Positions 34,533-53,970 of a stretch of DNA of 64,000 nt are shown piece by piece. A program made the position numbers and the translations under genes. Source of the stretch: Blastococcus sp. LR1 (lineage in GTDB: Bacteria; Actinomycetota; Actinomycetes; Mycobacteriales; Geodermatophilaceae). Under the pieces are notes generated by a model. The model made no database searches and was not told the DNA's origin. It was given only the letters and a program-made list of their open reading frames with translations. The stretch covers positions 124,001-188,000 of the forward strand of contig NZ_JAIUJY010000004.1 of NCBI RefSeq assembly GCF_020166105.1. The letters are read 5' to 3'. Within the stretch, counting starts at the first letter, position 1. Each line of letters opens with the position of its first letter.

Positions 34533-34574
34533 GTGCGCTGGGCTCCCGTGCTGCATGCCGATGGGCGGCGTTTG

Positions 34575-34612
34575 CTACTCGCCGGTAACAAACGCTATTA
34601 CTCATCGGTAAC
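34575..34612. promoter_or_regulatory. two operator-like boxes upstream of the acyl-CoA dehydrogenase
   Basis: CTACTCGCCGGTAAC (34575-34589) and TTACTCATCGGTAAC (34598-34612), 23 bp apart start to start and so about two helical turns. Each is a near-palindrome of the type TTAC-N6-GTAA, as bound by TetR dimers. A third copy is at 53956. Confidence 0.65.
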
Positions 34613-34694
34613 AACGGCAAGCTCCTCCGGGTCCGACACGCCTGGATCGCCCCATGTGCCCCGATCGGAGGAGGCGTGGGCGCACGGACGCGAC

Positions 34695-34726
34695 GGGCCC
34701 GCACGCGCGGGAGCGCATGCGGGCCC
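34695..34726. terminator. hairpin after the LapA-like gene
   Basis: GGGCCCGCA and TGCGGGCCC around a 14-base, partly self-pairing loop, 27 bases after the stop of the minus-strand gene at 34753. Confidence 0.7.
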
Positions 34727-34752
34727 AGGGTCGAGCGGGGTCGAGCCGTGGT

Positions 34753-35136
34753 TCAGCGGTGCCGGCGGCGCGCCCGTCGGACGAGACCGGCCAGCCACAC
34801 CAACAGCCCGCCGAGCGCGGCAGAGATCAGCAGCGCCACCACGAGCGGGGCGTCGACGTCGCCGAACACCAGGCTGATCGGCACGGTCTGGTCGTTGAAG
34901 ACGACGAACAGCACCAGCACCACGGTCACGAAGATCAGCAGCGCGAGCGCGAGGGATCGGCCGATGGTCTTGCCGGCGTGCCGCTCGCGGGCCGGTGCCT
35001 CCGGAGACGACGGGCCGCTCGACGCAGGCGTCGGCGCCGGAGTGCCGGGACCCGCAGTCGGTGCGCTCGTCGTCGTCGGCGGGTTTAGGCCGACGCTCAG
35101 CGGGTCCGAGGACGGCGGGGGAGTCGGGGCGCTCAT
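34753..35136 (-). CDS. LapA-domain (DUF1049) membrane protein
   Basis: 127 residues: a Pro/Thr/Ala-rich N-terminal half, then two membrane helices with the LapA signature between them (ALALLIFVTVVLVLFVV, NDQTVPISLVFGDVDAPL, VVALLISAALGGLLVWL) and a basic C-terminus. In Gram-negatives LapA helps lipopolysaccharide assembly; in actinobacteria the domain has no known role. Its ATG overlaps the stop of the upstream acidic gene by ATGA, so they are coupled. Confidence 0.82.
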   Translation of the reverse strand: MSAPTPPPSSDPLSVGLNPPTTTSAPTAGPGTPAPTPASSGPSSPEAPARERHAGKTIGRSLALALLIFVTVVLVLFVVFNDQTVPISLVFGDVDAPLVVALLISAALGGLLVWLAGLVRRARRRHR

Positions 35137-35297
35137 CGGGCGTCCGGCTCGGTGCCGGCCGGCGGGTAGGCCGGTCCGGCGATCCCGTCGGCGGGGCCCT
35201 CGGTCGCGCCCAGCGAGTCGCGGTCCTCGCCCGGCGCCTTCTCGGCGCCCAGCGGTTTCGCCTCGCGGTCGGAGCCGCGGCCGTTCTCGTCAGGCAT
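35133..35297 (-). CDS. 54-residue acidic protein upstream of the LapA-like gene
   Basis: Starts MPDENGRGSDREAKPLGAEK and is rich in Gly, Asp, Glu, Ala and Pro, ending PAGTEPDAR; probably disordered. A Met two codons earlier at 35303 is possible. The stop overlaps the LapA-like gene's start, which argues for real translation. Function unknown. Confidence 0.55.
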   Translation of the reverse strand: MPDENGRGSDREAKPLGAEKAPGEDRDSLGATEGPADGIAGPAYPPAGTEPDAR

Positions 35298-35413
35298 GGT
35301 CATGCGCAAGGGTCTGCCCGTCCCGGCCCCCCTGGAAACGGTCATCAGCACGTGCCCGCCGGGGTCTCGGGGCGTCGGGGCGCCCCGCTGGACCCGAGGT
35401 GATCACGCCGTCG

Positions 35414-35836
35414 TCACTCCGAGAGGGCGGGGCCCGCCTCGTGGTTCGGATGGCCGGCGGTGCGCTCGCGCTGCTTCATGCGCGCCTCGAAGACGTGCCG
35501 GTCGCCGCCGGCGAGCTCGTCGCGGGCCCGCGCGTCGTAGGCGCGGAAGGTGCCCCAGTAGTTCTCGTCGAAGTCCTCGACGATCTGGAAGGTCCAGCGG
35601 TCGGCGATGACGTTGCGGCCGACGAGGTCCCGGTCCAGGTCGCCGGCCAGCTCGGTGGCGCCGGCCTTCTCGAACAGCTCCACCGACTCCTGCAGCAGGC
35701 GGTCGGCCTTGCCGGTGAGCTGGTGGAAGGCGTACAGGAAGCCGCGGGCCTGGTCGACGGTCTCCAGGGCCTCGGAGAGCTTGCCCAGCGCCTCGACCGT
35801 GGTGTCGTCGAGGTCCGGGCGGGTGCGATCGGTCAC
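35414..35836 (-). CDS. conserved hypothetical protein
   Basis: 140 residues, soluble and mostly helical. Conserved-looking segments are VDQARGFLYAFHQLTGKAD, ELAGDLDRDLVGRNVIADRW and FQIVEDFDENYWGTFRAYD; the dense Asp/Trp/Tyr pattern suggests an actinobacterial family I recall only as uncharacterised. It lies between the small acidic/LapA pair and a TetR gene on the same strand, with gaps of over 30 bases. Confidence 0.7.
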   Translation of the reverse strand: MTDRTRPDLDDTTVEALGKLSEALETVDQARGFLYAFHQLTGKADRLLQESVELFEKAGATELAGDLDRDLVGRNVIADRWTFQIVEDFDENYWGTFRAYDARARDELAGGDRHVFEARMKQRERTAGHPNHEAGPALSE

Positions 35837-35873
35837 CCGACCATCCTGCGGGGCGGTCGGGGAGCCCGCCTGC

Positions 35874-36512
35874 TCAGGCGCGCGCGACCGCCGCGTCGAT
35901 CAGCTTCTCGGCGAGCTGCCGGCCGTGGGCGGCCGGGCCGTCGGGCCCGAGCAGCCCGCCGGAGAGGTACATGCCGTCGATGATCAGGTGCAGCTGCGCG
36001 GCGAGGTCCTCGCCAGCGCCGGGGGCGACCTCCTCGGCCAGTCGCTCCAGGCGGCCGTAGAGCTCGAACTTGTAGTCGGCGGCGGCGCTGCGGGCCGGGT
36101 GCTGCGGGTCGTCGTACTCGCTGCTCACGTTGTTGAACGGGCAGCCGCGGAAGCCGGTGCGGGTGACGTCCCGCTCGACGGCGTCGACGACGGACAGCAG
36201 GGCCGCCCGCGGGTCGCCCTCGAGGCGGTCGAGCTCGGCGTCGATGAACGCCAGGACCGTCGCCGCCTTGCGGGACAGGTAGGCGCCGACGAGGTCGTCC
36301 TTGCTCTTGAAGAGCCGGTAGACCGTCATCTTGCCCAGGCCGGTCTCCCGGACGAGCTCGTCCATGCCGACGCTGCGCGAGCTGCGGCTGGAGAACAGCC
36401 GCTCGGCGGTGTCGAGGACGATCGCCTGCCGCTCGGCGCGGCTGCGGCGGACCGGTGCCGAGGTGTCGTCGGCGGGGGCGAGATCCAGTACGGCGGTCAC
36501 GTCAGGGAGCAT
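35874..36512 (-). CDS. TetR-family transcriptional regulator
   Basis: 212 residues. The N-terminal domain has the TetR helix-turn-helix (AERLFSSRSSRSVGMDELV, recognition part ETGLGKMTVYRLFKSKDDLV). The ligand domain holds a Cys in GFRGCPFNNVSSEY, the TetR_C motif of the LmrA/YxaF-like branch. The Met at 36512 is chosen over an upstream start at 36623 that would add a basic, unrelated tail. Its target is unknown; a candidate is its own promoter. It cannot be tied by sequence to the fadE/etfD boxes, though it is 1.3 kb from one of them. Confidence 0.85.
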   Translation of the reverse strand: MLPDVTAVLDLAPADDTSAPVRRSRAERQAIVLDTAERLFSSRSSRSVGMDELVRETGLGKMTVYRLFKSKDDLVGAYLSRKAATVLAFIDAELDRLEGDPRAALLSVVDAVERDVTRTGFRGCPFNNVSSEYDDPQHPARSAAADYKFELYGRLERLAEEVAPGAGEDLAAQLHLIIDGMYLSGGLLGPDGPAAHGRQLAEKLIDAAVARA

Positions 36513-36649
36513 GCACCGGTACGTGACGGAGCAGTTCGCGGCACGCCGGTCTGGTTGCTCTGGGTGACGAGGGGCGCCCGGGCTGAACGAGACGACGGGG
36601 AGCAATGGTGCCGATGTGATCACTCAGCGTGAGAATCGGCGGTTCGACT

Positions 36650-36775
36650 TCAGTCGCGACGGATGCGCCGGGGATTGGCGAGCATCCGGGCGACGGCGCG
36701 CACGGCTGTCTCGACCCGGGGCTCCTCGTTGCCGGACGAGTCGGTGCTGCGGTCGGAATCGGGAGAGTCGGCCAT
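36650..36775 (-). CDS. possible 41-residue protein
   Basis: ATG at 36775 opens MADSPDSDRSTDSSGNEEPR, an acidic segment, followed by a basic amphipathic helix VETAVRAVARMLANPRRIRRD. The ribosome site is poor. The acidic-then-basic layout is unlike random GC-rich translation and could be a small regulatory protein. Unrecognised. Confidence 0.45.
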   Translation of the reverse strand: MADSPDSDRSTDSSGNEEPRVETAVRAVARMLANPRRIRRD

Positions 36776-36898
36776 GGAGCCGAGCCTGCCCGACGCGGCG
36801 CGGGGCGAAACCGCAGCTCGCGGGCGCATGACCCGTCCGGGGCAGAGACGTCGCTCACCGCCGAGGAACGGCCGCCGGGGCGATGAGCGACGTCGGCC

Positions 36899-37054
36899 TC
36901 AGACGTCCGGGGTGTCCGCGCCGTCGGCGGCGGTGTCCGAGCGCCCCTCGGCCGGCTCCTCCGGGTGCGGGGTGCGGCCGCTGCCGCCCTCCTCGCCGGC
37001 GGGATCGCCCTCGGCGCGCTCGGCGCTGTGCGGAGTGCGATGCGACTCGCTCAT
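36899..37054 (-). CDS. 51-residue acidic, probably disordered protein
   Basis: Starts MSESHRTPHSAERAEGDPAG and ends DGADTPDV; rich in Glu, Gly, Asp and His. A perfect GGAGGAG ribosome site is placed 6 bases before the ATG. Probably a real small gene; function unknown. Confidence 0.6.
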   Translation of the reverse strand: MSESHRTPHSAERAEGDPAGEEGGSGRTPHPEEPAEGRSDTAADGADTPDV

Positions 37055-37182
37055 GTCGGCTCCTCCTCATCGGTACGGGTCGACGGGCCAGTGCCCGGAC
37101 GGCTCGGGGGCGAACCCCGGCCACGTCGTTTCCGCCGGGGCGACACGCGGTAGGGGAGACCGGACGCACCCGAGGAGGACCC

Positions 37183-37527
37183 ATGGCCGGCGAGGACCCC
37201 GACCAGATCAGGCAGGAGTTCGGCGAGGCGGTCAACATGACCGCCGGCGAGCTGGAGAAGTGGCTGGAGGGTGAGGAGTCCAGGAGCGTCGGTCAGAAGC
37301 AGGACGGCGCAGACGAGTCCACCGGTCACGCCTCGGGCCGCCGCATCGTCGAGCTGCTCCGCACCAAAAAGGCCGATCTCACCGGCGACGACCTCGCGCA
37401 CATGCGCAAGGTGCACGGCTACGTCGCGCGGCACCTGGCCCAGGAACCGAAGCAGTCCGACATCGAGACCTCCACGTGGCGCTACTCCCTGATGAACTGG
37501 GGGCACGATCCGCTGAAGAAGAGGTAG
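37183..37527 (+). CDS. DUF3140 protein
   Basis: 114 residues starting MAGEDPDQIRQEFGEAVNMT, with ELEKWLEGEESRSVGQ and a C-terminal WRYSLMNWGHDPLKK that are characteristic of DUF3140, a small cytoplasmic family in actinobacteria and some others whose function is unproven, sometimes proposed to be DNA-binding. GAGGAGG ribosome site. It is followed after six bases by a methyltransferase gene. Confidence 0.85.
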   Translation: MAGEDPDQIRQEFGEAVNMTAGELEKWLEGEESRSVGQKQDGADESTGHASGRRIVELLRTKKADLTGDDLAHMRKVHGYVARHLAQEPKQSDIETSTWRYSLMNWGHDPLKKR

Positions 37528-37533
37528 GCCCCC

Positions 37534-38241
37534 GTGCGACGCACCGCGCTGCCGCGCAACGACCCTGCGCAGTACGACGTCATGGCCGACCAGTGGTGGG
37601 AGGCCTCCGGCGGGTTCGCCGCGCTGCACTGGCTCGCCGCCTCGCGGGCCGAGCACATCCCGCCCGCCGCAGCGCCCGGCGCGCTCCTGGTGGATCTCGC
37701 CTGCGGGGGCGGCCTCATGGCGCCGCACGTGGCCGGGCTGGGATACCGGCACGTCGGCGTCGACCTGGGGGACGCCGGACTGCGGGTCGCCCGCGGACAC
37801 GGCGTCCAGCCCGTCCGGGGCTCGGTGCTCGCCGTCCCGCTGGCCGACGGCTGTGCCGACGTCGTCGTCGCCGGCGAGGTGCTCGAGCACGTGGACGACG
37901 ACGTCGCGGTCCTGGCGGAGTGCGCGCGGCTGCTGCGGCCCGGCGGCACGCTGGTGCTCGACGCGCTCGCCGACACCCGGATCGGCCGGTTCCTCATGGT
38001 CACCGTGGCCGAGCGCCTGCCGGGCGGGCCGCCGCCGGGCATCCACGACCCGGCGCTGTTCGTGGACCGCGCCCGGTTGCTCGCCGCCGCCGACCGGCTG
38101 GGGCTGGACCTGCGGCTGGTCGGCCTGCGGCCGTCGCTGCGGGACGCCGTCGCCTGGCGCCTGGGCCGCCGCGACGGCGTCCGGATGAAGCCGGTGCGCT
38201 CCACCGGCGTCGTCTTCGCCGGATACGGCCGCAAGCGGTGA
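37534..38241 (+). CDS. class I SAM-dependent methyltransferase (UbiG-like)
   Basis: 235 residues. The SAM-binding motif LLVDLACGGGLMAPHVAG, the acidic VGVDLGDAG at motif II, the VVVAGEVLEHVDDD core and the LRPGGTLVLDAL strand identify a UbiG/COQ3-type O- or C-methyltransferase. The N-terminal QYDVMADQWWEASGGFAALH is the UbiG opening. It lies directly before a type III polyketide synthase on the same strand, so it probably methylates the polyketide product (for example a phenolic hydroxyl), although ubiquinone-type ring methylation cannot be excluded. Confidence 0.85.
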   Translation: MRRTALPRNDPAQYDVMADQWWEASGGFAALHWLAASRAEHIPPAAAPGALLVDLACGGGLMAPHVAGLGYRHVGVDLGDAGLRVARGHGVQPVRGSVLAVPLADGCADVVVAGEVLEHVDDDVAVLAECARLLRPGGTLVLDALADTRIGRFLMVTVAERLPGGPPPGIHDPALFVDRARLLAAADRLGLDLRLVGLRPSLRDAVAWRLGRRDGVRMKPVRSTGVVFAGYGRKR

Positions 38242-38313
38242 GCGAGCGTCCGTTGAAGGGCGCACGTACCGTCGGAGCATGATCTCGAGCAGGCCCGCCA
38301 CGGAGCGGCGAGC

Positions 38314-39342
38314 GTGACCGCGGCGGTCGTCACCGGGGCCGGGGCGGCACTCCCGGCGACGCTGGACCAGCGGGCTGCGTGGGACGGGTTCTTCGCCCGG
38401 CACTACGAGGGCGTGCGGGCGGCCGAGCGGATCTTCATGGGCGCCGGCGTGCAGCGCAGGCACGCGGTCGCCAACCCGATGGACGAGGACCTCAGCGGCT
38501 GGGGCACCGGCGCGCGCATGGAGCGCTACATCCAGGAGGCACTGCCCCTGGGGAAGCAGGCGGTGGCCGGCGCGCTGGACGCGGCCGGACTCGCGCCGGG
38601 CGACGTCGGGCTCTTCGCCGTCGCGACCTGCACGGGGTACGCCACCCCTGGACTGGACATCCGGCTCGCCAGCGACCTGGGCATGCCGCCGGGGCTGCAG
38701 CGGCTGATGGTCGGCCACATGGGCTGTTACGCGGCCATCCCCGGGCTCGCCGCCGTGGGCGACTTCGTCGCCGCCCGCTCGCGCCCGGCGGTGCTGCTCT
38801 GCTGCGAGCTGACCAGCCTGCACGTGCAGCCGGCCCAGCGGGACCTGGAGCAGGTGGTGGCACACGCGCTGTTCTCCGACGCCGCGGCGGCCGTCGTCGT
38901 GGAGCCGGGCGCCTCCCGAGGGCACCGGCTGGCCGGCGTCGTGGCGCGCACCGATGCCTCCACCTCCGACCACATGACCTGGGACGTCACCGACCTCGGC
39001 TTCCGGATGGGGCTCTCGCCCAAGGTGCCCGACGTGCTGTCCCGGCACGTCGGCGACGTCGTCGACGAGCTGCTCGGCGGCGCCGGGCTCACGGTGGAGG
39101 ACGTCGCGGGCTGGGCCGTGCACCCCGGCGGTCCGCGGATCATCGACGTCGTCCGGGACGAGCTGGGACTGCGCGAGGAGCAGGTGGGTGCGTCCCGCAG
39201 GGTGCTCGCCGAGCACGGCAACTGCTCCTCGGCCACCGTGCTGCTGGTCCTGCAGGAGCTGGCCGACGTGGACGGCCCGATCGTCGCGATGGCCTTCGGC
39301 CCCGGTCTCACGCTCTACGCCGCGCTGCTGATGCCCGCCTGA
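38314..39342 (+). CDS. type III polyketide synthase
   Basis: 342 residues of the chalcone synthase-like fold. The catalytic triad is complete: Cys138 in MVGHMGCYAAIPG, His270 in WAVHPGGPRI and Asn303 in EHGNCSSATVL. The CoA-binding region and the final FGPGLTLYAALL, equivalent to the GFGPG loop, are intact. Bacterial type III synthases make alkylpyrones, resorcinols or 1,3,6,8-tetrahydroxynaphthalene; the starter is not predictable here. A GTG at 38314 has a GGAG upstream. Together with the methyltransferase it forms a minimal biosynthetic locus with no transporter or cytochrome P450 nearby. Confidence 0.93.
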   Translation: MTAAVVTGAGAALPATLDQRAAWDGFFARHYEGVRAAERIFMGAGVQRRHAVANPMDEDLSGWGTGARMERYIQEALPLGKQAVAGALDAAGLAPGDVGLFAVATCTGYATPGLDIRLASDLGMPPGLQRLMVGHMGCYAAIPGLAAVGDFVAARSRPAVLLCCELTSLHVQPAQRDLEQVVAHALFSDAAAAVVVEPGASRGHRLAGVVARTDASTSDHMTWDVTDLGFRMGLSPKVPDVLSRHVGDVVDELLGGAGLTVEDVAGWAVHPGGPRIIDVVRDELGLREEQVGASRRVLAEHGNCSSATVLLVLQELADVDGPIVAMAFGPGLTLYAALLMPA

Positions 39343-39400
39343 GCCTGCCCGCACCGGCCCTCGCGCGCTCGCGGCGGTGCCCCTGACGGGCCCGACGGGC

Positions 39401-39406
39401 TAGCGT
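39401..39406 (+). promoter_or_regulatory. -10 element for a leaderless response-regulator gene
   Basis: TAGCGT is 7 bases before the GTG at 39414 and no ribosome site is present, so the message probably starts at the GTG. Confidence 0.5.
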
Positions 39407-39413
39407 TTATGCC

Positions 39414-40061
39414 GTGGATCACGTCGGGCCTGCCATCAGGGTCTTCCTGGTGGACGACCACGAGGTGGTCCGTCGCGGCGTGGCCGAGGTGCTCGAGGAC
39501 GACCCCGGCATCACCGTCGCCGGCGAGGCTGGGACCGTCGCCGAGGCCCTCGCGCGGGTTCCGGCCGTGCGGCCCGACGTCGCCATCCTGGACATGCGCC
39601 TGCCCGACGGGGACGGCGCGACCCTGTGCCGGGAGCTGCGGGCGCGGGAACCGGGGCTGCCCTGCCTGATCCTGACCAGCTACGGCGAGCAGGACGCGCG
39701 CGACGCCGCGCTGGACGCCGGCGCCTCCGGGTTCCTCCTCAAGCAGGTGCGCGGCTCGGCCCTGGTGGCGGCGGTGCGCACGGTCGCGGGGGGCGGCACG
39801 CTGATCGCCGAGGGGATCCGCGCGCCCGCCGCCCGCCTGGGTACCGACCGGCTGGCCCGGCTGACCGACCAGGAGCGCAGCGTGCTGCGGCTCATCGGCG
39901 AGGGCCTGACCAACCGGCAGATCGGCGAGCGGATGGGGCTGGCCGAGAAGACGGTGAAGAACTACACCAGCCACCTGCTGGCGAAGCTGGGGCTCGAGCG
40001 GCGGACCCAGGCGGCCATCCTGGCCACCGAGCTGCGCGATCACCGGACCCCCGGGCGCTGA
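39414..40061 (+). CDS. NarL/DevR-type response regulator
   Basis: 215 residues. The receiver domain at 1-125 has the acid pair DDHE, phospho-acceptor Asp60 in [12 protein letters not shown] and the conserved Lys in GFLLKQV. A LuxR-type helix-turn-helix fills the C-terminus ([20 protein letters not shown], recognition helix [14 protein letters not shown]). It resembles DevR/DosR. The natural partner is the GAF histidine kinase that converges on it, five bases away. Leaderless start. Confidence 0.92.
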
Positions 40062-40066
40062 TCCGC

Positions 40067-41524
40067 TCAGCCCGACAGGGGCACCGCCCACTCGATCTCG
40101 GTGCCCGACGGCGCCGCGGAGAGCACGAGCCGGCCACCGCGGCGTTCGGCGCGGTCGGCGAGGTTGGCCAGCCCGCTGCGCACGGTCACCGGCGGGAGCC
40201 CCCGGCCGTCGTCGGTCACGACCACCCGCACGTCCCCGGCGATCGCCACGGTCACCGTCAGCCGCGTCGCCGCGGCGTGGCGCACGACGTTGGTGACCAG
40301 CTCGCGGACCACCGCGACCAGGTCGGGCACCAGGTCGGGGGGCAGGTCCTCGACCTCGCTGCGGACCCGCAGGGAGGGGCGCACCCCGTGCCCCTCGGTC
40401 ACCGAGCGCACGACCTCGGCCAGCCGGCGGCGCACGGCCGCCGACGAGGCGTCCTCCGCCTCGTACAACTCGAAGATCGATTCCCGGATGCGGGCGATCG
40501 TTCCGTCGAGCTCGTCCACGCGCTCGGCGATCCGCGCCGCCTCCCGGGGCGCCGTGGCCTCCAGGGACCGCCCGATCCGGTCCAGGGCCAGCGCGGTGGC
40601 GAAGATCCGCTGCACCACGTGGTCGTGCAGGTCGCGCGCGATCCGGTCGCGGTCGGTCTGCAGCTGCAGGCGCCGTTCCCGCTCCTGGCTGCGCACCAGC
40701 CCCATCGCGACGGTCGCCTGCCGGGCGAACGCCGCCGCCAGCTCCAGCACCCGGTCCCCGAAGGGCCCGCGACCCCGGAACCGCAGCACGGCGAGCGTGG
40801 CCATCGGAGAGGTGCCGCCGAGGGGGATGAACAGCCCGGGCCCATACCGGTGGGCGATCATCGTGACGACCTCCGCCGGCTGGGCCCCGGGCAGGGGGGT
40901 GGCGGCGTCGTCGATCACCTGGGGGACGCCGGCGTGGTGCGCAGCGTGCAGGCGGGTCTCGGCGAGCGGGAGGCGTACGCCCTCCATCTCCGCGGCCAGA
41001 GGGCCCACCGCGGCCCCGATCATCAGCGACTGGTCCTCGTCCCCGGCAGGCACGAGGACGCCGACGGCGTCGGCATCGGCGAGCTCGGCCACCCGGGCGG
41101 CGGCCTCCCGGAGCACCTGGTCGGCCGGGGTCCCCGACAGCAGCGCGGTCGCGATGTCGGTGCCCGCCAGGGCCCAGGCCCGCCGTCGCCCGGTGTGCTC
41201 GAGCAGCCGGGCGCTCTCGACGGCCGGCTCCGCGGCAGCGGCGAACGCCTCCGCCGCGGCGCGCTCCTCGGCGGTGAAGGGTCCCGCCTCCGCGGGCCTG
41301 GCGAGTCGGAGGGTGGCCAGGGGCGCGCCCGCCGGCCCGATCCGGACGACGAGCTCGGCGGAGCGCGAGGGGATCCCCTCAGGGCCCACCGTGACGGACC
41401 GGTCCAGTCCGGGCGGCATCCGCACCGTCAGCTCCGCGACGGGGGCGGCGAGGTGCTGTGTGGCGGCGCCGGCCAGGTGGCGCAGCGTCGTCTCGACCGC
41501 GTCGTCCAGGGAGGGATCTCTCAT
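40067..41524 (-). CDS. GAF-domain sensor histidine kinase (DevS-like)
   Basis: About 485 residues, soluble. Residues 10-105 and 120-275 are GAF-type sensor regions, the second with GVLVPAGDEDQSLMIGAAVG. HisKA_3 dimerisation follows with phospho-acceptor His300 in DRIARDLHDHVVQ, and the HATPase_c domain ends the protein (N-box ELVTNVVRHAAAT, G1 VVVTDDGRGLP). It therefore belongs to the NarL-coupled kinases and most likely phosphorylates the regulator encoded tail-to-tail at 39414. Whether the GAF domains bind heme, as in DevS, cannot be told. Met at 41524 is chosen; 41602 adds an Arg/Pro-rich stretch. Confidence 0.87.
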   Translation of the reverse strand: MRDPSLDDAVETTLRHLAGAATQHLAAPVAELTVRMPPGLDRSVTVGPEGIPSRSAELVVRIGPAGAPLATLRLARPAEAGPFTAEERAAAEAFAAAAEPAVESARLLEHTGRRRAWALAGTDIATALLSGTPADQVLREAAARVAELADADAVGVLVPAGDEDQSLMIGAAVGPLAAEMEGVRLPLAETRLHAAHHAGVPQVIDDAATPLPGAQPAEVVTMIAHRYGPGLFIPLGGTSPMATLAVLRFRGRGPFGDRVLELAAAFARQATVAMGLVRSQERERRLQLQTDRDRIARDLHDHVVQRIFATALALDRIGRSLEATAPREAARIAERVDELDGTIARIRESIFELYEAEDASSAAVRRRLAEVVRSVTEGHGVRPSLRVRSEVEDLPPDLVPDLVAVVRELVTNVVRHAAATRLTVTVAIAGDVRVVVTDDGRGLPPVTVRSGLANLADRAERRGGRLVLSAAPSGTEIEWAVPLSG

Positions 41525-41749
41525 CTGTGGTCCGAGGGGACGGGCGGGGGCACGGCCCGAACCGTAGGAGCGCCGGCGCGGAGGCGGAAGCGATGTGTCC
41601 ATGGTGGCCCGCGATCCGGTGGTGCCCCAGGGACCAAGGGCCCCCCAGGGGGCAGGGCCCCATGGACAAGGCCTCGGGGCATCTCACTCGGAGGGGAGTG
41701 GACCGGCGCTCGGCCTCAAGATCGGGTGCCCACCGTCCGATGCGGTGGC

Positions 41750-44014: not shown

Positions 44015-44906
44015 CGTCGTCGTAGCCGGTGTTCAGCGACGCCGACCCGTCCACCGCCGCGGCGATGCCGTCCACCAGGCCGTTCATCTCGCCGACGGTG
44101 CCGCCGACGTTGCTCATCTTGTCGGCGACGTTCTCCGAGGCCTGCCGGATCTGCTCCACCTGGGCGGTCACCCGCTCGGTCGCCCGGCCGGTCTGGTCGG
44201 CCAGGTCCTTGACCTCCGAGGCGACGACGGCGAAGCCCTTGCCGGCCTCCCCGGCCCGGGCGGCCTCGATCGTCGCGTTGAGCGCCAGCAGCCGGGTCTG
44301 GGCGGCCACCGAGTCGATCAGCGCGATGATCTCCTTGATCTCGGTCGAGGACCGGGTGAGCAGGCTGATGGTGTCGCGGGCGACGTCCACCTCGCTGCTG
44401 GCGGCCGACGCCGCGGCGGTGAGGCCGGACGCCGAGGCGCTGAGCTCCGTCGCCGCCGTCGCCACCTGCTCGGACATCGCCAGCACGACCGACTCGAACT
44501 CGTCGGCCAGCCGCAGCCGGCTGGTCTGCGCCTCGGCGACCCGGCCGTCGGTTGCCTGCATGGCGCTCCGGGCGTCGTTGATGTCGACGGCGCTGCGCCG
44601 GAAGGAACCCAGCAGGCCGGTGGTGAGCAGCTTGCGGTGGAACCGTCCCTCGGCGGCCGAGCTCAGCGCGGCCGAGGACTCCCGGACGAAGGCGTCGGAG
44701 ACGTCGAACACGCGGTTCAGCGCATGGTGCAGCCCGGTCAGCTCGGGCACGGCCTCCGCCGCGGGGGTCAGCCGGCTGCGCACCTCGAGGTCGCCGCGGG
44801 CGGCCGCCTCGCACGCCTGGGTCAGCTGGGAAACGAACGCGCGGTAGACGGCGAGCTCCTCGGCGTCGGACCGGCGGCCGCCGTCGCGCAGGGATCGCTT
44901 CCCCAT
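43941..44906 (-). CDS. soluble methyl-accepting chemotaxis-type signalling protein
   Basis: 321 residues without a membrane helix. A helical N-terminal region (20-125) resembles a HAMP/linker, and a methyl-accepting signalling domain follows with the hairpin tip [20 protein letters not shown] and [15 protein letters not shown] (landmarks), which is highly conserved for CheA/CheW contact. Its start is one base after the PAS gene's stop, so the pair amounts to a split Aer-like redox/energy sensor. No che genes are in the window. Its 3' end overlaps the antisense GGDEF-EAL frame by 74 bases. Confidence 0.9.
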
Positions 44907-44907
44907 C

Positions 44908-45486
44908 TCAGCTCTCCTCGCGGTTGATGATCGTCCAGATGAACTCCTCGTAGCTCTGCTGCTGCCCGGCGAGCACGTCGGCGAGCAGCCGCGAGGAGGC
45001 GTCGACCGCGGCGCGGGCGTTGGGGTGCCGGCGCTCCTCGGCGATCAGCTGCGCGTAGAGGGGCTGCACCCGGCGGATGGCGGCGGCCGAGGGCTTGCGG
45101 CGGTTGGAGTGGTAGCCGACCACCCGGCCGTCGGGCCCCTGCGACGGCGTCACGTGCGCCAGCACCCAGTAGTGGTCGCCGTCGGCGGCCAGGTTGTTGA
45201 TGTAGGCGAAGATCTCCTGCTTCGCGCCGAGGGTGTCCCACAGCAGCTTGAACACGGCGCGAGGCATCTCGGGGTGCCGGATCATGTTGTGCGGCTGGCC
45301 GAGCACCTCGTCCTGCCCGTAGCCGCTGACCCGCAGGAAGACGTCGTTGGCGTAGGTGATGATCCCGCGCGGATCGGTCTTCGACACGATCAGCTCGTCG
45401 GGGGAGAAGGGCCGTTCGCGCCCGGTGGGGCGGGCAGCGGTGCGGCCGCCGCGGGGTGCCGGTGGGGCCGGCCGGGTGTCGAGCAC
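44908..45486 (-). CDS. Aer-like PAS-domain protein
   Basis: 192 residues. The PAS core at 30-135 has [18 protein letters not shown], the [20 protein letters not shown] helix and VLAHVTPSQ, matching the FAD-binding PAS of Aer, including the [11 protein letters not shown] motif (landmarks only). A helical C-terminus follows that ends in [10 protein letters not shown]. It has no transmembrane part or MCP domain of its own; those functions come from the coupled downstream gene. Probably senses redox or oxygen through FAD. Confidence 0.88.
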
Positions 45487-45562
45487 GCGGATCTCCCTGC
45501 TGGTTCGGTTCGTGCTCTCCTCATCGGCAGGTCCGAGTCCTTCCGGAACGCTTCCGGCACGA

Positions 45563-45605
45563 CACCGCGCCCCGTCCGTATGGGGAAGCCGGACGGGGCG
45601 CGGTG
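45563..45605. terminator. 16-bp hairpin after the subtilase gene
   Basis: CACCGCGCCCCGTCCG and the exact complement around an 11-base loop, 37 bases after the stop of the minus-strand protease. Confidence 0.85.
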
Positions 45606-45642
45606 GTTCAGGAGGCGCCGCGGAGCAGCGCCGGTCGGGGCG

Positions 45643-48321: not shown

Positions 48322-48449
48322 CCGTTGCTGCCTTCCGGCGCGGCCTCCCGGTAGGTCCGGGGGCATTCCTGGCACGCAACGGCACCCAGGGCGGTCGGCT
48401 TGAGCGGCTCGGGGCCCCCTCACCCCGCAGGAGGGCGGTCGCGGTTCCC

Positions 48450-48455
48450 TAGACT
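48450..48455 (+). promoter_or_regulatory. -10 element for a leaderless dcd gene
   Basis: TAGACT lies 7 bases before the ATG at 48463, with no ribosome site, so dcd is probably leaderless. Confidence 0.5.
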
Positions 48456-48462
48456 CCGCGCC

Positions 48463-49050
48463 ATGCTGCTGAGCGACCGCGACATCACGGCCGCGATCGC
48501 CGAGGGACGCCTCGGCATCGACCCCTACGACCCGGCCCTGGTGCAGCCCTCCAGCATCGACGTCCGGCTGGACCGCTTCTTCCGCGTGTTCAACAACTCG
48601 CGGTACACCCACATCGACCCGGCGGAGCAGCAGGACGACCTGACCACCCCGGTCGAGCCCGAGGGCGACGAGCCGTTCGTCCTGCACCCCGGGGAGTTCG
48701 TGCTCGGCTCCACGCTCGAGGTCATCAGCCTGCCCGACGACCTCGCCGCCCGGCTGGAGGGCAAGTCCTCGCTCGGCCGGCTGGGCCTGCTCACCCACTC
48801 CACCGCGGGTTTCGTGGACCCCGGGTTCTCCGGCCACATCACGCTGGAGCTGTCCAACGTGGCCAACCTGCCGATCACGCTGTGGCCCGGGATGAAGATC
48901 GGCCAGCTGTGCATGTTCAGGCTCACCAGCCCGGCGGAGCACCCGTACGGCTCGGCGGTGTACGGCTCGCGGTACCAGGACCAGCGCGGCCCGACGCCGT
49001 CCCGGTCCTACCGGAACTTCACCCGCGCGGAGACCCGCCGTCCCGACTGA
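48463..49050 (+). CDS. dcd: dCTP deaminase (bifunctional DCD:DUT type)
   Basis: 195 residues. [38 protein letters not shown] and the C-terminal [14 protein letters not shown] that closes over the active site are all present, and follow closely the mycobacterial enzyme known to turn dCTP directly into dUMP. It supplies dUMP for thymidylate without freeing dUTP. Its 3' end overlaps the 3' end of the convergent MFS gene by 32 bases. Confidence 0.96.
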
Positions 49051-50344
49051 CGCGTGAGCTGACCGGCGCCTCGGTGCCGGCGACCCCGATGCGGTCGGCG
49101 TCCGGTGTGGCCCCGGCGCCGACGGGGAGCAGGTGCGCGATCTCGTCGTCGACGAACCGGTCGCGGGTGACGAGCCAACCCAGCGACCACAGCCCGGCGA
49201 CGCCGACGAGCAGCAGCACGAACATGCCGTCGTACCCGCCCGTCGCGCCGCGCAGCACCCCCACGAGGAGCGGTCCGGCGCCGGCGATCAGGTAGCCCCA
49301 GCCCTGGGTCACGGTGGACAGCGCCGTCGTCGTCACCGGCGTGCGCGCCCGCAGCCCGAGCAGCGCCAGGACCATCGCGAAGGTGCCCAGGCCCAGGCCG
49401 AGCAGCACCATCCACAGCCACGGAGCGGCGAGCGGCGCCGTCCAGAGCCCGACCCAGCCGGCGACGTAGCAGCTCATGAAGAAGCAGACCAGCGGCCACT
49501 GCAGCCGCGGCCGGACGGTGAGCATCGGGACGACCGCGTTGACCGGGATGGCCACCACCGAGTTGACGCCGAGCAGCAGCCCCGCGGTGGCCGCGCTGAG
49601 CCCGGCGTCCCGCAGGTACTGGGCCGACCAGCCCACGATCACGTAGGCCTGCATCGCCTGCAGCCCGAAGAACACCGTGAGGGCCAGCGCGAGGCGGCTG
49701 CGCAGCAGCACCCGCAGGCGGACGGCGCTGTGCGTGGCGCGGGAGGCGCCGGGGGAGGGGCGCACCAGCACCCAGGGGAGCGCCGCGACGAGAGCCGCCA
49801 CGGCCCAGATCCCGAGCGCCCAGCGCCAGCCGCCCTCGCCGACGGCGTCGGCGATGGGCTGGGTGGCCACCGACGCGACGGCGGCCCCCACGCTCAGCGC
49901 GGTGCTGTAGGCCCCGACCAGCAGGCCGGTCCGCCCCGGGAAGTAGCGCTTCACCAGGCCGGGCAGGAGCACGTTGCCCAGGGCGCCGCCGGTCATCGCC
50001 GCCACCGTGCCGACGACGAACAGCGGGAAACCGTCGGCCAGGCTGCGCACGACCAGCCCTGCGGCCATCGCGAGCAGCGCTCCGGCCAGCACGTGCGAGT
50101 CGCGGAACCGGGCCGACAGCGGCGGGCCGGCGAAGCCGAGCGCGGCGAAGCAGAGCACCGGCAGCGAGGTGACCAGCCCGGCCAGCCCGCTGGACAACCC
50201 GAGGCCGTTCTCGATCTCCTCCAGCACCGGGCCGATGCTGTTCACCGCGGTCCGCAGGTTCAGGCCGGTGAGCACGATCGCCGTGGCGATCAGCGCGAGA
50301 CCCCGACGTCGGGATCCGGTCGGTGCGGGGGCGCTGCTGCTCAC
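49019..50344 (-). CDS. MFS transporter, CynX/NimT type
   Basis: About 441 residues with 12 hydrophobic segments. The early [20 protein letters not shown] is typical of the cyanate/nitroimidazole-transport CynX branch, and [15 protein letters not shown] marks the second half. Substrate unknown. GTG at 50344 follows a GAGG; an Arg-rich upstream extension is not used. C-terminal residues are encoded on DNA that overlaps dcd. Confidence 0.85.
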
Positions 50345-50397
50345 TGCCTCGATGGTCCTCCATGACCGGCGGCACACGCCGTCCGGGTCGGCAGGCG

Positions 50398-51354
50398 TCA
50401 GCGCGCCACGCGCTCCACCTTCGGCACGGTCCGCGGCATGCGGTGCCAGACGGCCTTCTGCAGCGCGAGGGTGGCGAGGGCGGCGACCAGGATCCCCACC
50501 AGGTTGATGCCCAGCTGGGTCGCCGCGCGGGTGAACTCGGCGCCGCCACCGAGCGCCATGGCGAGGGCCATGTCCGCGGCCGCGGGCACGGTCGTGACCG
50601 AGATGAAGACGCCGACCAGCGCGCCGCTCTTGGCGGAGGTGAGGGAGAGGACGCCGGCGACCCCCGCGAGGACCGCGACCACGACCGACCACCGGTCGGG
50701 GGCGGTGATGAAGCCGGTCGCGGGACGGTCGGCGGCGAGCAGCTCGGGCCCGAACCAGCCGAGGCCCCGGCCGGCCAGGACCACCAGCGCCGTGACCGCG
50801 ATGGCGACGGCGAACCCGACCGCCAGCGAGATCGCCGCCTGGCGGGCGATCGAGGGACGGCGGTGCAGGACGGCGACGGCGAGCGCGGCCAGCGGGGCGA
50901 ACTCCGGCCCCAGCACCATCGCGCCGATCACCAGGATCGCCGAGTCGTTGATGATCGCGACCGCGGCCAGCAGCGTCGCGATGGTGAGGAACGCCAGGTA
51001 GGAGACCGACAGCGAGGAGTCGGCGTCGGTGGTGCGCACCACCTGCTCCCACACGACGGCGTCGGCGCCGTCGCCCGGAGCGCGGTCCTCCGCCCGGCGG
51101 GCCGCGGAGGAGACCGCGGCGTCCACGGCCACCAGCGCGATGCCGCCGTCCCGGTCGACGCCGAGGTCGCGCAGCGCCTTCACCAGGCCGTCGGCCGACT
51201 CCCGGGCGACGTCGGCGAGCACCAGGTCACCGGCGGGGGCGACCGACGCCCCGTGGAGCACCGCCAGGTGGGCGGTCCCCAGGTCCTGTTCGAAGAGGTC
51301 GCGGACCTGCGCGGTCCGGTCGGCGGGAACGGTGACCCGCAGCTGCATCAGCAC
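50398..51354 (-). CDS. DUF389 membrane protein
   Basis: 318 residues: an N-terminal cytoplasmic ferredoxin-like part (1-110) and about six membrane helices from 115 on. The DUF389 signatures SYLAFLTIATLLAAVAIIND, AMVLGPEFAPLAALAVAV and TTVPAAADMALAMALGG (landmarks) are present. The function of the family is not proven; a membrane-stress or transport role is speculative. Met at 51354 or 51348 may start it. Confidence 0.85.
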   Translation of the reverse strand: MLMQLRVTVPADRTAQVRDLFEQDLGTAHLAVLHGASVAPAGDLVLADVARESADGLVKALRDLGVDRDGGIALVAVDAAVSSAARRAEDRAPGDGADAVVWEQVVRTTDADSSLSVSYLAFLTIATLLAAVAIINDSAILVIGAMVLGPEFAPLAALAVAVLHRRPSIARQAAISLAVGFAVAIAVTALVVLAGRGLGWFGPELLAADRPATGFITAPDRWSVVVAVLAGVAGVLSLTSAKSGALVGVFISVTTVPAAADMALAMALGGGAEFTRAATQLGINLVGILVAALATLALQKAVWHRMPRTVPKVERVAR

Positions 51355-51433
51355 TCGGCCACTCTGCAGGGTCCCGCCGCGAGCGTGCGAGTGGTGGGGG
51401 GCAGGGTGGTCCTTCTGCTACACGGAGAACGAC

Positions 51434-51470
51434 GACGGCGCGCGCCCCCTCGGAGGGAACGCGCGCCGTC
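51434..51470. terminator. hairpin after the etfD-like gene
   Basis: GACGGCGCGCG with perfect complement CGCGCGCCGTC around CCCCCTCGGAGGGAA, whose own CCCTC/GAGGG can pair; 20 bases downstream of the stop. Confidence 0.8.
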
Positions 51471-51489
51471 GGCGGTGCTGCTGCTCTTG

Positions 51490-53787
51490 CTACTTCGGGT
51501 CGTGCTCCGTGGCGGCGGAGTCCAGGCCGACGACGTCGTCGTCCTTCGTGCCGACGTCGGCACCCTGCTCGGCCCCCTGGGCGCCGACCGCGACCGGCTG
51601 CATGGAGCGCAGCAGGATCTGGCTGACGTCGAGGACCTCGACGTGGTCCTTGGCCTCGCCGTTCTGCTTCTTGGCGGTCAGCGCGTCGCTGAGCATCGTG
51701 ATGCAGAACGGGCACGCGGTGGAGATGACGTCGGGATCGAGCTCGAGCGCCTCTTCGGTGCGCTCGACGTTGATCCGCTTGCCGATCTTCTCCTCCATCC
51801 ACATGCGGGCACCGCCGGCGCCGCAGCAGAAGCCACGGTCCTTGCAGCGGTGCATCTCCTGCGTGGAGAGGCCCTGGACGGAGTCCAGGATCTCGCGCGG
51901 AGGCGTGTAGACCTTGTTGTGCCGGCCCAGGAAGCACGGGTCGTGGTAGGTGACCTTGCGGTCGACCGGGGTGACCGGCACCAGCCGGCCCTCCTCCACC
52001 AGCTGGCCGAGCAGCTGCGTGTGGTGGATGACCTCGTACTCGCCGCCGACCTGCGGGTACTCCTTGCCCAGCGAGTTGAAGCAGTGCGGGCAGGTCGCGA
52101 CGATCTTGCGGGTGCCCGGCACGCGGCCCTCGAAGACGCCGTTGAGGGTCTCGACGTTCTCCATGGCCAGCTGCTGGAAGAGGAACTCGTTGCCCATGCG
52201 GCGGGCCGGGTCACCCGAGCAGGTCTCGCCGCTGCCGAGGACGGCGAACTCGACGCCCGCGGTGTTCAGCAGTTCGGCGACGGCCTTGGTGACCTTCTTG
52301 GCCCGGTCGTCGACGGCACCGGCGCAGCCGACCCAGAACAGGTACTCGACCTCGTTCGGCAGCGGGCCGTCGGCCATGCGGACCTCGAAGTCGAGCTCCT
52401 TGATCCAGTCCTCGCGGACGTTGCCGCCCATGCCCCACGGGTTTCCGCGCTTCTCGAGGTTCGTCATCATGACGCCGGCCTCGGACGGGAAGTTGGACTC
52501 GATCATGACCTGGTAGCGGCGCATGTCGTTGATGTGGTCGACGTGCTCGATGTCCACCGGGCACTGCTCGACGCAGGCGCCGCAGTTGGTGCAGCTCCAC
52601 AGGACGTCGGGGTCGATGACGCCGGCCTCCTCGAGGGTGCCGACCAGCGGACGGTGGGCCTGCGCGTCGTTGGTGCCCTCGACGCGGGCGTACCCGGAGG
52701 CCCAGACCTGCTCGTCGCTGGGCTTGAGGACGTCGTAGTCCGGCATCGTCTCGGCAGCGGTCTTCTCGCCGAGGAGGTAGGGAGCCTTCGCGTAGAGGTG
52801 ATCGCGAAGATCCATGATCACCATCTTCGGGCTGAGCGGCTTGCCCGTGTTCCACGCCGGGCACTGGCTCTGGCAGCGACCGCACTCGGTGCAGGTGCTG
52901 AAGTCCAGCATTCCCTTCCAGGTGAAGTCCTCGATCTTGCCGCGGCCGAAGGTCGCGTCCTCGTCCGGATCCTCGAAGTCGATCGGCTTGCCGCCCGACG
53001 TCATCGGGAGCAGCGCGCCGAGCGCGGGGGCGCCGTCGGCGTTGCGCTTGAAGTAGATGTTGAAGAAGGCGCTGAACCGGTGCCAGGCGACACCCATGTT
53101 CAGGATCCGGCTGATGACCACGAGCCAGGTCAGGGAGATCACGATCTTGACGAAGGCGACGATCGTCAGCAGGTCGGGGCTGTCCGGGAGGACGTTCGCG
53201 ATCAGGCCGGAGACCGGGTGCGACCAGGCCGGGGCGTCGGTCAGGTCGCTGGAGACCTTCAGCGCGCGGATCAGCAGGATGCAGATGCCGACGGTGGTGA
53301 CGACGGCCTCGACGAAGTAGCCGCGGCCCTCGTTGCTGCCGGCGAAGCGGCTCTTGCGTCCCTGGCGGCGCGGGTGGTCCTTCTGGCGCCGGTAGATCAG
53401 GTAGCCGATGCCCAGGATCGTGCCGGTGCCGATGATGTCGGCGAACAGGTTCCACAGGCCCCAGTTGCCGATGAGCGGCAGGTGGAAGGCCGGGTTGAAC
53501 ACCTCGCCGAAGGCCTCGACCAGCGTCAGGAACAGGCCGTAGAAGCCGATGAAGACGAACCAGTGGGCGATGCCGATCGATGACCACTTGAGCATTCGGG
53601 TGTGGCCGAGCGACTCGATCGCCAGCGTCTTCAGCCGGGTCTTGACCGGGCCGAAGCGGGTGTCGTCGGGCTGGCCGGTGCGGATGATCCGCACCATCGC
53701 GCGCACGGCGCGGTAGGCCATCACCGAGGCCACGATCAGGAACAGGACGCTGATCGTCCCGAGGACGATCTGCAGCGGGCCCGTCAT
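51490..53787 (-). CDS. etfD: EtfD-like membrane Fe-S oxidoreductase (ETF:menaquinone)
   Basis: 765 residues. The N-terminal third has five or six membrane helices of the nitrate-reductase gamma type. A dicluster follows: CTECGRCQSQCP near 295 and CTNCGACVEQCP near 405. Then come two CCG domains (GETCSGDPARR, CPHCFNSLG, GFCCGAGGARMW) that can hold a non-cubane cluster. This is the layout of mycobacterial EtfD/Rv0338c, which takes electrons from ETF in fatty-acid oxidation to menaquinone. ATG at 53787 with a GGGGAGG site; upstream is the 15-bp box shared with the acyl-CoA dehydrogenase gene. No etfA/B in the window. Confidence 0.9.
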   Translation of the reverse strand: MTGPLQIVLGTISVLFLIVASVMAYRAVRAMVRIIRTGQPDDTRFGPVKTRLKTLAIESLGHTRMLKWSSIGIAHWFVFIGFYGLFLTLVEAFGEVFNPAFHLPLIGNWGLWNLFADIIGTGTILGIGYLIYRRQKDHPRRQGRKSRFAGSNEGRGYFVEAVVTTVGICILLIRALKVSSDLTDAPAWSHPVSGLIANVLPDSPDLLTIVAFVKIVISLTWLVVISRILNMGVAWHRFSAFFNIYFKRNADGAPALGALLPMTSGGKPIDFEDPDEDATFGRGKIEDFTWKGMLDFSTCTECGRCQSQCPAWNTGKPLSPKMVIMDLRDHLYAKAPYLLGEKTAAETMPDYDVLKPSDEQVWASGYARVEGTNDAQAHRPLVGTLEEAGVIDPDVLWSCTNCGACVEQCPVDIEHVDHINDMRRYQVMIESNFPSEAGVMMTNLEKRGNPWGMGGNVREDWIKELDFEVRMADGPLPNEVEYLFWVGCAGAVDDRAKKVTKAVAELLNTAGVEFAVLGSGETCSGDPARRMGNEFLFQQLAMENVETLNGVFEGRVPGTRKIVATCPHCFNSLGKEYPQVGGEYEVIHHTQLLGQLVEEGRLVPVTPVDRKVTYHDPCFLGRHNKVYTPPREILDSVQGLSTQEMHRCKDRGFCCGAGGARMWMEEKIGKRINVERTEEALELDPDVISTACPFCITMLSDALTAKKQNGEAKDHVEVLDVSQILLRSMQPVAVGAQGAEQGADVGTKDDDVVGLDSAATEHDPK

Positions 53788-53955
53788 GTTTTCCTCCCCG
53801 GACGCCCGAGGGCGTCGGCTGACCCGTCGGCCACGTGGGGCGACGAGGCTGTGTGTGGTGCGCGCGCCGTCGGACCCGGCGTCGAGCCGGTCTCCGGAGC
53901 GCGTGCGGGCACCGCTGCCCGCACTGCTGCGCACGATAGCGGGCGCCCCTGGAGG

Positions 53956-53970
53956 CTACTCGCGGGTAAC
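53956..53970. promoter_or_regulatory. operator-like box upstream of the etfD-like gene
   Basis: CTACTCGCGGGTAAC, 14 of 15 bases identical with the box at 34575 and 12 of 15 with that at 34598. It is 168 bases before the etfD start. Confidence 0.6.

What the first reader, a model, noticed from the sequence alone, without database searches (positions are those of the whole stretch)
34575..53970. The same 15-bp operator lies before the acyl-CoA dehydrogenase and the ETF-quinone oxidoreductase genes
CTACTCGCCGGTAAC and TTACTCATCGGTAAC precede the fadE5-like gene and CTACTCGCGGGTAAC precedes the etfD-like gene, 19 kb away. All fit TTAC-N6-GTAA half-site symmetry. The two enzymes are consecutive steps of one electron path in beta-oxidation, so a common regulator would make physiological sense.
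Basis: partly seen in the sequence, partly recalled or inferred. Interest (0 to 1): 0.75.

Follow-up and report, generated by a model that had tools for sequence, protein, structure and literature searches.

The report
Shared fat-burning switch of actinobacteria
The same short DNA signal sits in front of genes that burn fatty acids and pass on their electrons, in this soil bacterium and in many members of its bacterial class, which points to a shared fat-sensing control protein, probably FasR.

Summary
Three palindromes (core YTAC-N6-GTAR) precede fadE5 (two) and etfD (one); 0.31 expected by chance. All nine precede fatty-acid, acyl-CoA, ETF-chain or pyruvate-kinase genes; a looser motif adds etfBA, an acyl-CoA dehydrogenase pair and a B12 mutase. 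Family conservation: fadE5 30/30, etfD 29/30, etfB 28/30 of the best loci, none elsewhere in 375 kb of them. Beyond it: fadE5 65/65 scorable loci, including Mycobacterium and Nocardia; etfB 72/108 class genomes, control 1/108. At fadE5 the sites bracket a conserved -10 (27/28 loci), a repressor layout. The best regulator is not the neighbouring TetR (35874) but the FasR orthologue: the DNA co-crystallised with M. tuberculosis FasR carries the same half-sites, and small genomes with 2-6 TetRs all keep FasR, 7 of 8 with the etfB site. FdmR, reported to regulate fadE5 in mycobacteria, and FasR paralogues are serious rivals. No binding was shown.

The parts
34575..34589 (-). Proximal fadE5 operator (CTACTCGCCGGTAAC on +; TTACCGGCGAGTAG on the gene strand)
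   Evidence: conserved in the family
34598..34612 (-). Distal fadE5 operator (TTACTCATCGGTAAC on +); lies in the -35/-10 spacer
34592..34597 (-). Probable -10 element TAGCGT of fadE5 (TAnnnT in 27 of 28 family loci that have both operators)
   Evidence: the sigma-70 consensus scan found no promoter here
34615..34620 (-). Probable -35 element TTGCCG of fadE5 (a TTG within 12 bp upstream of the distal operator in 28 of 28 such loci)
32694..34556 (-). fadE5, acyl-CoA dehydrogenase (620 aa; likelier start at 34532)
   Evidence: solved FadE5 chain 6kse E=3e-255; Pfam acyl-CoA dehydrogenase domains
53956..53970 (-). etfD operator (CTACTCGCGGGTAAC on +)
   Evidence: 29 of 30 family loci
53933..53938 (-). 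Possible -10 element TATCGT of etfD (conserved GCTATCGTGCG block)
   Evidence: alignment of 27 family loci printed
51490..53787 (-). etfD-like iron-sulfur reductase (765 aa)
   Evidence: PDB 9ojn 'Iron-sulfur-binding reductase' E=6e-238; CCG and Fer4 domains

Best explanation
The palindrome is the operator of an acyl-CoA-sensing TetR-family repressor, most likely the FasR orthologue encoded elsewhere in this genome (contig C5:64917-65546). Without long-chain acyl-CoA the dimer sits on the operators. At fadE5 one operator fills the -35/-10 spacer and the other starts 3 bp after the -10, so RNA polymerase is kept out. When fatty acids arrive, long-chain acyl-CoA fills the FasR tunnel and the protein leaves DNA, as reported for M. 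tuberculosis FasR. fadE5, fadAB, etfBA, etfD and genes that assimilate the resulting acetyl-CoA (ccr, a B12-dependent CoA mutase, a malyl-CoA-lyase-like gene and others) then switch on together. Shown here by computation: the sites, their genome-wide targets, conservation at fadE5, etfD and etfB, the fadE5 promoter layout, the FasR orthologue, and the match of the published FasR DNA to the motif. Inferred: that FasR is the binder, repression rather than activation, and the ligand.
For: Genome-wide specificity: 9 sites against 0 control; 16 places against 1 control hit per strand; 11 of the 16 precede fatty-acid, acyl-CoA or ETF-chain genes and one more precedes pyruvate kinase. Conservation: family 30/30, 29/30, 28/30 of the best loci and none elsewhere in 375 kb; fadE5 65/65 scorable loci outside the family, control 0/79 overall; etfB 72/108 in the class against 1/108 control and 0.46% of shuffles. 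Repressor layout in 27 of 28 loci. FasR link: (1) the 25-bp DNA co-crystallised with M. tuberculosis FasR (PMC7382501, methods passage) scores 10.0 and 7.3 in two abutting registers of a matrix built without it, while only 3 of 63,979 window positions reach 8. (2) Upstream of fas in 8 same-order genomes, 18 sites scoring 8 or more lie in the -300..+100 window in 7 of 8 genomes, 1 elsewhere in the same regions; control motif 1; the four g13 genomes have three or four each, and the paper reports three inverted repeats. (3) The own FasR is 101/200 identical to M. tuberculosis FasR, recognition helix VSKPVLYQHF unchanged, tunnel residues kept or similar. (4) FasR is in 56/57 family and 107/118 class genomes at E<1e-48, own included. 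(5) In 8 small genomes (f23) with 2-6 TetR genes each, FasR is present in all and the etfB site in 7. (6) The fasR promoter has a half-degenerate site, mostly at -26/-27; best score 4 or more in 23 of 30 relatives.
Against: No binding or expression data. FasR is so widespread that its presence does not predict the etfB site: with it 69 of 102, without it 3 of 6; G102, G114 and G115 have a site but no close FasR (assemblies of 120-380 contigs). Family f17 has FasR and no etfB site (0/9); f22 0/3, f12 0/3, f15 3/8. The small-genome argument leaves one other shared TetR group (near a clgR-like gene), and in AT-rich G164 the control motif scored higher (21.2) than the site (17.3). NCBIfam's FasR cut-off (330 bits) is not met (252.9). 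M. tuberculosis FasR is described as an activator of fas, not a repressor of beta-oxidation. In M. marinum the reported regulator of fadE5 is FdmR. In family f18 a FasR paralogue stands divergent to an acyl-CoA dehydrogenase gene with a strong site between them. One same-order fas region (L420) has no site of 8 or more.
Confidence: 0.58

Rival explanations
1. The operator belongs to another acyl-CoA-sensing TetR: an FdmR (Rv0238) orthologue, or a FasR paralogue such as the TetR at C2:758679 next to a thiolase/3-oxoacyl-reductase pair. FasR would then share the half-site without being the main regulator, or several paralogues would share the sites.
For: [quoted passage not shown] marinum and as a long-chain acyl-CoA-responsive repressor (passages in PMC9262360 and PMC12403877). 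In unnamed family f18 a FasR paralogue is divergent to an acyl-CoA dehydrogenase gene with a site scoring 21.6-23.0 between them in all three f18 loci inspected (L454, L456, L464, of seven held). The own paralogue sits beside a thiolase, a 3-oxoacyl-ACP reductase and an acyl-CoA dehydrogenase.
Against: No site scoring 6 or more lies near the own paralogue (the only one in its 18-kb region, 8.1, is about 7.4 kb away inside another gene). The eight f23 genomes have no match to the paralogue at E 1e-20 although 7 have the etfB site. MadR, which I take from recalled gene neighbours for a member of the paralogue clade, is described with a different consensus (PMC8872791). The FdmR sequence and motif could not be obtained, so that rival was not tested directly.
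Confidence: 0.3
2. The TetR at 35874, beside fadE5, is the regulator.
For: It is kept within 2.5 kb upstream of fadE5 in 11 of 11 Geodermatophilaceae loci with that much flank (two more have too little flank).
Against: No operator in its own promoter (window scan). No match to it within the flanks of the 66 fadE5 loci outside the family, of which all 65 scorable ones keep the operator. Only its HTH region resembles FasR (31.8 bits).
Confidence: 0.07
3. The sites are activator sites or a non-TetR element, not repressor operators.
For: At etfD the site lies upstream of the likely -10, where an activator could also sit, and the fabG1 site lies some 80-90 bp before the gene. M. tuberculosis FasR is described as an activator at fas.
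Against: At fadE5 the two sites bracket the -10 in 27 of 28 loci.
Confidence: 0.1
4. Chance resemblance.
For: None found.
Against: Controls.
Confidence: 0.01

Closest known systems
FasR (Rv3208) and its fas-acpS operator, M. tuberculosis
   Same: Orthologous TetR (101/200 identical); same DNA half-sites in the crystallised operator; long-chain acyl-CoA releases it from DNA (PMC7382501, section 10 and passages)
   Different: Described as activator of fas-acpS; control of beta-oxidation, ETF, etfD or ethylmalonyl-CoA-type genes was not seen in what I read. In C. glutamicum FasR is described as an acyl-CoA-dependent repressor of accD1, fasA and fasB (PMC7851686, passages). Not the same as S. coelicolor 'FasR' (SCO2386), described as activator of the fab operon (PMC7324645, passages).
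FdmR (Rv0238), M. marinum / M. tuberculosis
   Same: TetR repressor of fatty-acid degradation genes including fadE5, responsive to long-chain acyl-CoA (passages in PMC9262360 and PMC12403877; original paper not held)
FadR of E. coli (GntR family; recalled)
   Same: Works like it: one acyl-CoA-released factor tied to both fatty-acid degradation and synthesis genes
   Different: A different protein family (recalled)
CcrR of Methylobacterium (TetR; recalled, only search listings seen)
   Same: A TetR acting on ccr of the ethylmalonyl-CoA pathway
   Different: Orthology and operator not compared; no beta-oxidation role recalled

Membership tests
FasR (TetR family, NF053731) | TetR_N DNA-binding domain | tested here: met
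   PF00440 62.5 bits against a cut-off of 24
FasR (TetR family, NF053731) | NCBIfam equivalog cut-off (330 bits) | tested here: not met
   252.9 bits over residues 10-206; best of 23 families by far (next 59.1), but the cut-off is not reached, so I call it an orthologue by similarity and distribution, not a certified FasR
FasR (TetR family, NF053731) | Full-length similarity to solved FasR, conserved recognition helix and acyl tunnel | tested here: met
   6o6p E=8e-59; 101/200 identical; L98, F138, L185 kept, L106 to M, F123 to Y, V163 to I
FasR (TetR family, NF053731) | Operator carries the half-sites of the crystallised FasR DNA | tested here: met
   scores 10.0 and 7.3 with the operator matrix, flanks unknown; fas upstream regions of 7 of 8 same-order genomes
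FasR (TetR family, NF053731) | Release from DNA by acyl-CoA of C16 and longer | not testable with these tools
   needs binding assays
FdmR regulon | fadE5 carries the operator in mycobacteria too | tested here: met
   present at all Mycobacterium and Mycolicibacter fadE5 loci among the best 80 (L397, L400, L405, L406, L409, L415); that FdmR is what binds it was not tested
FdmR regulon | Regulator orthologous to Rv0238, with its motif | not tested
   the original paper is not held; no Rv0238 sequence was at hand
FadR (E. coli type) | GntR-family winged-helix protein | not tested
   the candidate regulators examined are TetR proteins; no GntR gene was searched for, so only 'works like' is claimed
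TetR repressor operators in general | Palindrome overlapping the core promoter | tested here: met
   fadE5 layout in 27 of 28 loci with both operators; at etfD and etfB the layout is not clear

The most novel reading that the evidence does not exclude
FasR is the actinomycete counterpart of E. coli FadR: one widespread acyl-CoA-sensing TetR that represses beta-oxidation, its electron-transfer chain (etfBA, etfD) and acetyl-CoA assimilation through ethylmalonyl-CoA-type genes, while acting on fatty-acid synthesis (fas in mycolate-makers, fabG1 here) and pyruvate kinase. Its described role as FAS-I activator would be a partial view.
Probability: 0.4. Interest if true: 0.75.

Novelty: new variant of a known kind. 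Interest (0 to 1): 0.6.

Why it matters
It ties beta-oxidation, the ETF/EtfD electron path, acetyl-CoA assimilation and part of fatty-acid synthesis to one conserved DNA signal with a concrete candidate reader. That makes a directly testable claim about how actinomycetes decide between burning and building fat, and it would widen FasR from a regulator of fatty-acid synthesis to a general lipid switch. EtfD matters in mycobacteria: it is reported as essential for beta-oxidation (PMC8593149, abstract start in the listing) and inhibitors of it are being sought (PMC11567552, title in that listing).

Tried and rejected
The TetR at 35874 as regulator: no operator in its promoter, no match near fadE5 outside the family. 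The TetR beside the second etfD copy (C3:428132): no site in that region. The paralogue at C2:758679: kept as a rival, no site near it. Co-occurrence of FasR with the etfB site: not informative, FasR is nearly universal. MadR as reader of the site: described motif differs. The clgR-neighbour TetR: cannot be excluded; I recognised no fatty-acid-oxidation gene in its 3-kb locus. Sites at smc (C5:310592, 13.1), C6:155186 (4.7) and perhaps the subtilase gene (C7:211658, 16.8) are probably chance or unexplained. The sigma-70 consensus scan found no promoter at fadE5; the promoter claim rests on conservation alone.

Limits. A complete ethylmalonyl-CoA pathway was not shown: the mutase matches solved methylmalonyl-CoA mutases best, and isocitrate lyase was not looked for. 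The C6 site also faces a sugar-transporter gene on its other side, so its target is a choice. Family counts use the 30 best loci of 57 genomes searched, and the matrix was trained on those sites, so they are partly circular; the outside-family fadE5, class-level etfB and fas tests are not. The matrix background (73% GC) is too lenient for the AT-rich f23 genomes; without G164, 6 of 8. Of 27 TetR matches in f23, 24 were given loci and could be grouped. All 39 home TetR genes were looked at for promoter sites, but for C3:436806 only about 60 bp beyond the domain were held. Rows dropped: one fadE5 locus (L402) too short to score; 12 FasR rows thinned from the tree; two fadE5 loci without a pair of operators.
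Full report
Observation. The TTAC-N6-GTAA form gives one exact and two one-mismatch sites, plus a weak one at 1740. Both genes run on the minus strand, so all three sites lie upstream. The 620-aa enzyme is FadE5 (solved FadE5 chain, E=3e-255); the other gene is EtfD-like (51490-53787; PDB 9ojn, an iron-sulfur-binding reductase, E=6e-238).

Genome-wide targets. The host is a Blastococcus or near relative: the closest titled fadE5 in genome contigs is 95% identical and from Blastococcus saxobsidens (the home record may be left out there). A more general palindrome hits 16 places, against one control hit per strand. From ORF calling and family searches, the targets are: fadE5 (two sites), etfD, etfB-etfA, a divergent pair of acyl-CoA dehydrogenases, a thiolase followed by a FadB-type multifunctional enzyme (C6; a sugar-transporter gene lies on the other side), a double 3-hydroxybutyryl-CoA dehydrogenase, crotonyl-CoA carboxylase/reductase (ccr), a B12-dependent mutase of the methylmalonyl-CoA type, a malyl-CoA/beta-methylmalyl-CoA-lyase-like gene, fabG1 (C3, with a ferrochelatase gene downstream), and pyruvate kinase. 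That is 11 of 16 sites before fatty-acid, acyl-CoA or ETF-chain genes and one before pyruvate kinase. The remaining four are C7:163648 (score 23.1, before an unknown 356-aa gene near rpsF), C7:211658 (16.8, subtilase), C5:310592 (13.1, smc by my reading of the ORF) and C6:155186 (4.7). All nine hits are among the twelve. A second etfD copy (90% identical, C3:428841) has no site. No fadD was among the neighbouring genes that I annotated.

Conservation. I built a symmetric matrix from 113 sites of the home family, which makes the family counts partly circular. In the 30 best loci per gene (57 genomes searched), a site of score 13 or more lies in the -350..+150 window of fadE5 in 30/30 (two sites in 26), etfD in 29/30 and etfB in 28/30. 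No site occurs elsewhere in the 375 kb of these loci, and the control motif never occurs. Tests outside the family are independent of training. Of the 80 best titled fadE5 loci, 79 could be scored and 78 have a site (control 0); the miss has only 40 bp upstream, and all 65 scorable loci outside Geodermatophilaceae have one, including Mycobacterium, Nocardia, Gordonia, Amycolatopsis, Actinomadura and Aeromicrobium. For etfB in 108 other genomes of the class, 72 have a site, control 1, mononucleotide shuffles 0.46%. Groups differ: f2 8/8, f16 9/9, f18 8/8, f19 9/9, but f17 0/9, f22 0/3, f12 0/3 and f15 3/8. The six centre bases vary between relatives while the half-sites stay, as expected of a protein-binding palindrome.

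Promoter layout. In 28 of the 30 family fadE5 loci both operators are found, 22 or 23 bp apart. In 28 of 28 a TTG lies within 12 bp upstream, in 27 of 28 a TAnnnT follows the distal operator, and the spacer is 17-19 bp. The distal operator lies inside that spacer; in the window the proximal one begins 3 bp after the -10. That is a repressor's layout. A generic sigma-70 scan found nothing, so the promoter call rests on conservation. At etfD a conserved TATCGT lies downstream of the operator, which fits repression or activation; at etfB the layout is unclear.

Regulator. The home genome has 39 TetR_N matches. In the 30 loci first given, one site lies just before the TetR gene, at C5:65334 (score 8.6); the other nine showed none (one promoter only partly held). 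That gene is the FasR orthologue: full-length match to solved M. tuberculosis FasR, 101/200 identical, recognition helix VSKPVLYQHF unchanged, tunnel residues kept or conservatively changed. NCBIfam's FasR cut-off is not reached (252.9 against 330 bits). In relatives the fasR promoter keeps a half-degenerate copy mostly at -26/-27 (23 of 30 score 4 or more). The main link is outside evidence. The 25-bp DNA on which M. tuberculosis FasR was crystallised (PMC7382501, methods passage) contains two abutting copies scoring 10.0 and 7.3 although its flanks are unknown; only 3 of 63,979 window positions reach 8 (the matrix background is that of the home genome). Upstream of fas in eight same-order genomes, 18 sites of 8 or more lie in the -300..+100 window (relative to the stop before the fas frame) in 7 of 8 genomes, against 1 in the other 24,832 positions and 1 for the control motif; the four g13 genomes have three or four each. 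The paper reports three inverted repeats, dimers juxtaposed on one DNA fragment, and release by long-chain acyl-CoA. FasR is in 56/57 family and 107/118 class genomes, own included. In eight small genomes (f23, 1.2-2.2 Mb, 2-6 TetR genes) FasR is in all; the only other TetR group found in all eight has a distant home relative near a clgR-like gene (label recalled); the etfB site is in 7 of 8, or 6 if G164, whose control scores higher, is set aside.

Against this reading. FasR presence does not predict the etfB site (69 of 102 with it; 3 of 6 without it). FdmR (Rv0238) is reported as a regulator of fadE5 in mycobacteria (identity with Rv0238; original paper not held). A FasR paralogue in family f18 stands divergent to an acyl-CoA dehydrogenase gene with a strong site between (three loci inspected; the enzyme was checked in one). 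The tree of these TetRs (quick method with long branches) shows a FasR clade, a second clade whose members lie near genes that I read as desaturase or glmU, and a third clade including the paralogue at C2:758679. I therefore put FasR at about 0.58 and an FdmR-type or paralogue reader at 0.3.

The TetR at 35874 is kept beside fadE5 in 11 of 11 Geodermatophilaceae loci with enough flank, so it may have a local role, but no match to it lies in the flanks of the 66 loci outside the family, where the operator persists.

Known and new. That a long-chain acyl-CoA-responsive TetR controls fadE5 is reported for FdmR in mycobacteria. I saw no report of a class-wide operator shared by fadE5, etfBA, etfD and ethylmalonyl-CoA-type genes, or of FasR acting on them. 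Searches behind that statement: (open-licence papers only); the original FdmR paper and the 2013 FasR paper are not held. Papers seen: PMC7382501 (section 10 and passages); PMC10701892, PMC9301340, PMC10501769, PMC12403877, PMC9262360, PMC7851686, PMC5539140, PMC4482099, PMC6398593, PMC7324645, PMC8593149 (passages); PMC8872791 (abstract and passages); PMC11567552 (title in a listing). Group identities for f-codes (f2 mycolate-makers, f18 Streptomyces-like, f23 Nanopelagicales-like), some gene labels (fadA2, fabG4, clgR, glmU, smc), the DUF3107 neighbour of fasR, and the E. coli FadR and CcrR comparisons are my inference or recall.

Noticed in passing
window 35874-36623 (-): A TetR gene kept within 2.5 kb of fadE5 in all 11 Geodermatophilaceae loci with enough flank, yet without an operator of this type; its role is open.
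   Followed up: partly
G000:C3:428841-431219 (locus L157): A second etfD copy, 90% identical, lacks the operator and lies just downstream of a different TetR gene in a TetR-rich region; G028 and G049 also have a second copy.
   Followed up: partly
G000:C7:163648 (locus L034:4149-4162): A strong site (23.1) before an unknown 356-aa gene, divergent from a deoxyribonuclease IV gene and shortly before rpsF; does not fit the lipid theme.
   Followed up: no
G000:C1:182481 (locus L010:4482-4495): A site (17.2) about 70 bp before pyruvate kinase, a possible link between glycolysis and lipid use.
   Followed up: no
window 34593-34616 (-): The distal fadE5 operator with its flanks reads as a terminator-like hairpin followed by T's (1 found, 0.1 expected); probably a by-product of the palindrome.
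   Followed up: no
L454:1350, L456:2213, L464:1355 (unnamed family f18): A FasR-paralogue TetR divergent from an acyl-CoA dehydrogenase gene with a strong operator between them.
   Followed up: partly
class-level genomes G096, G111, G123 (f26) and G137, G157 (f33): Genomes without a close FasR orthologue that also lack a close EtfB; a possible joint loss.
   Followed up: no
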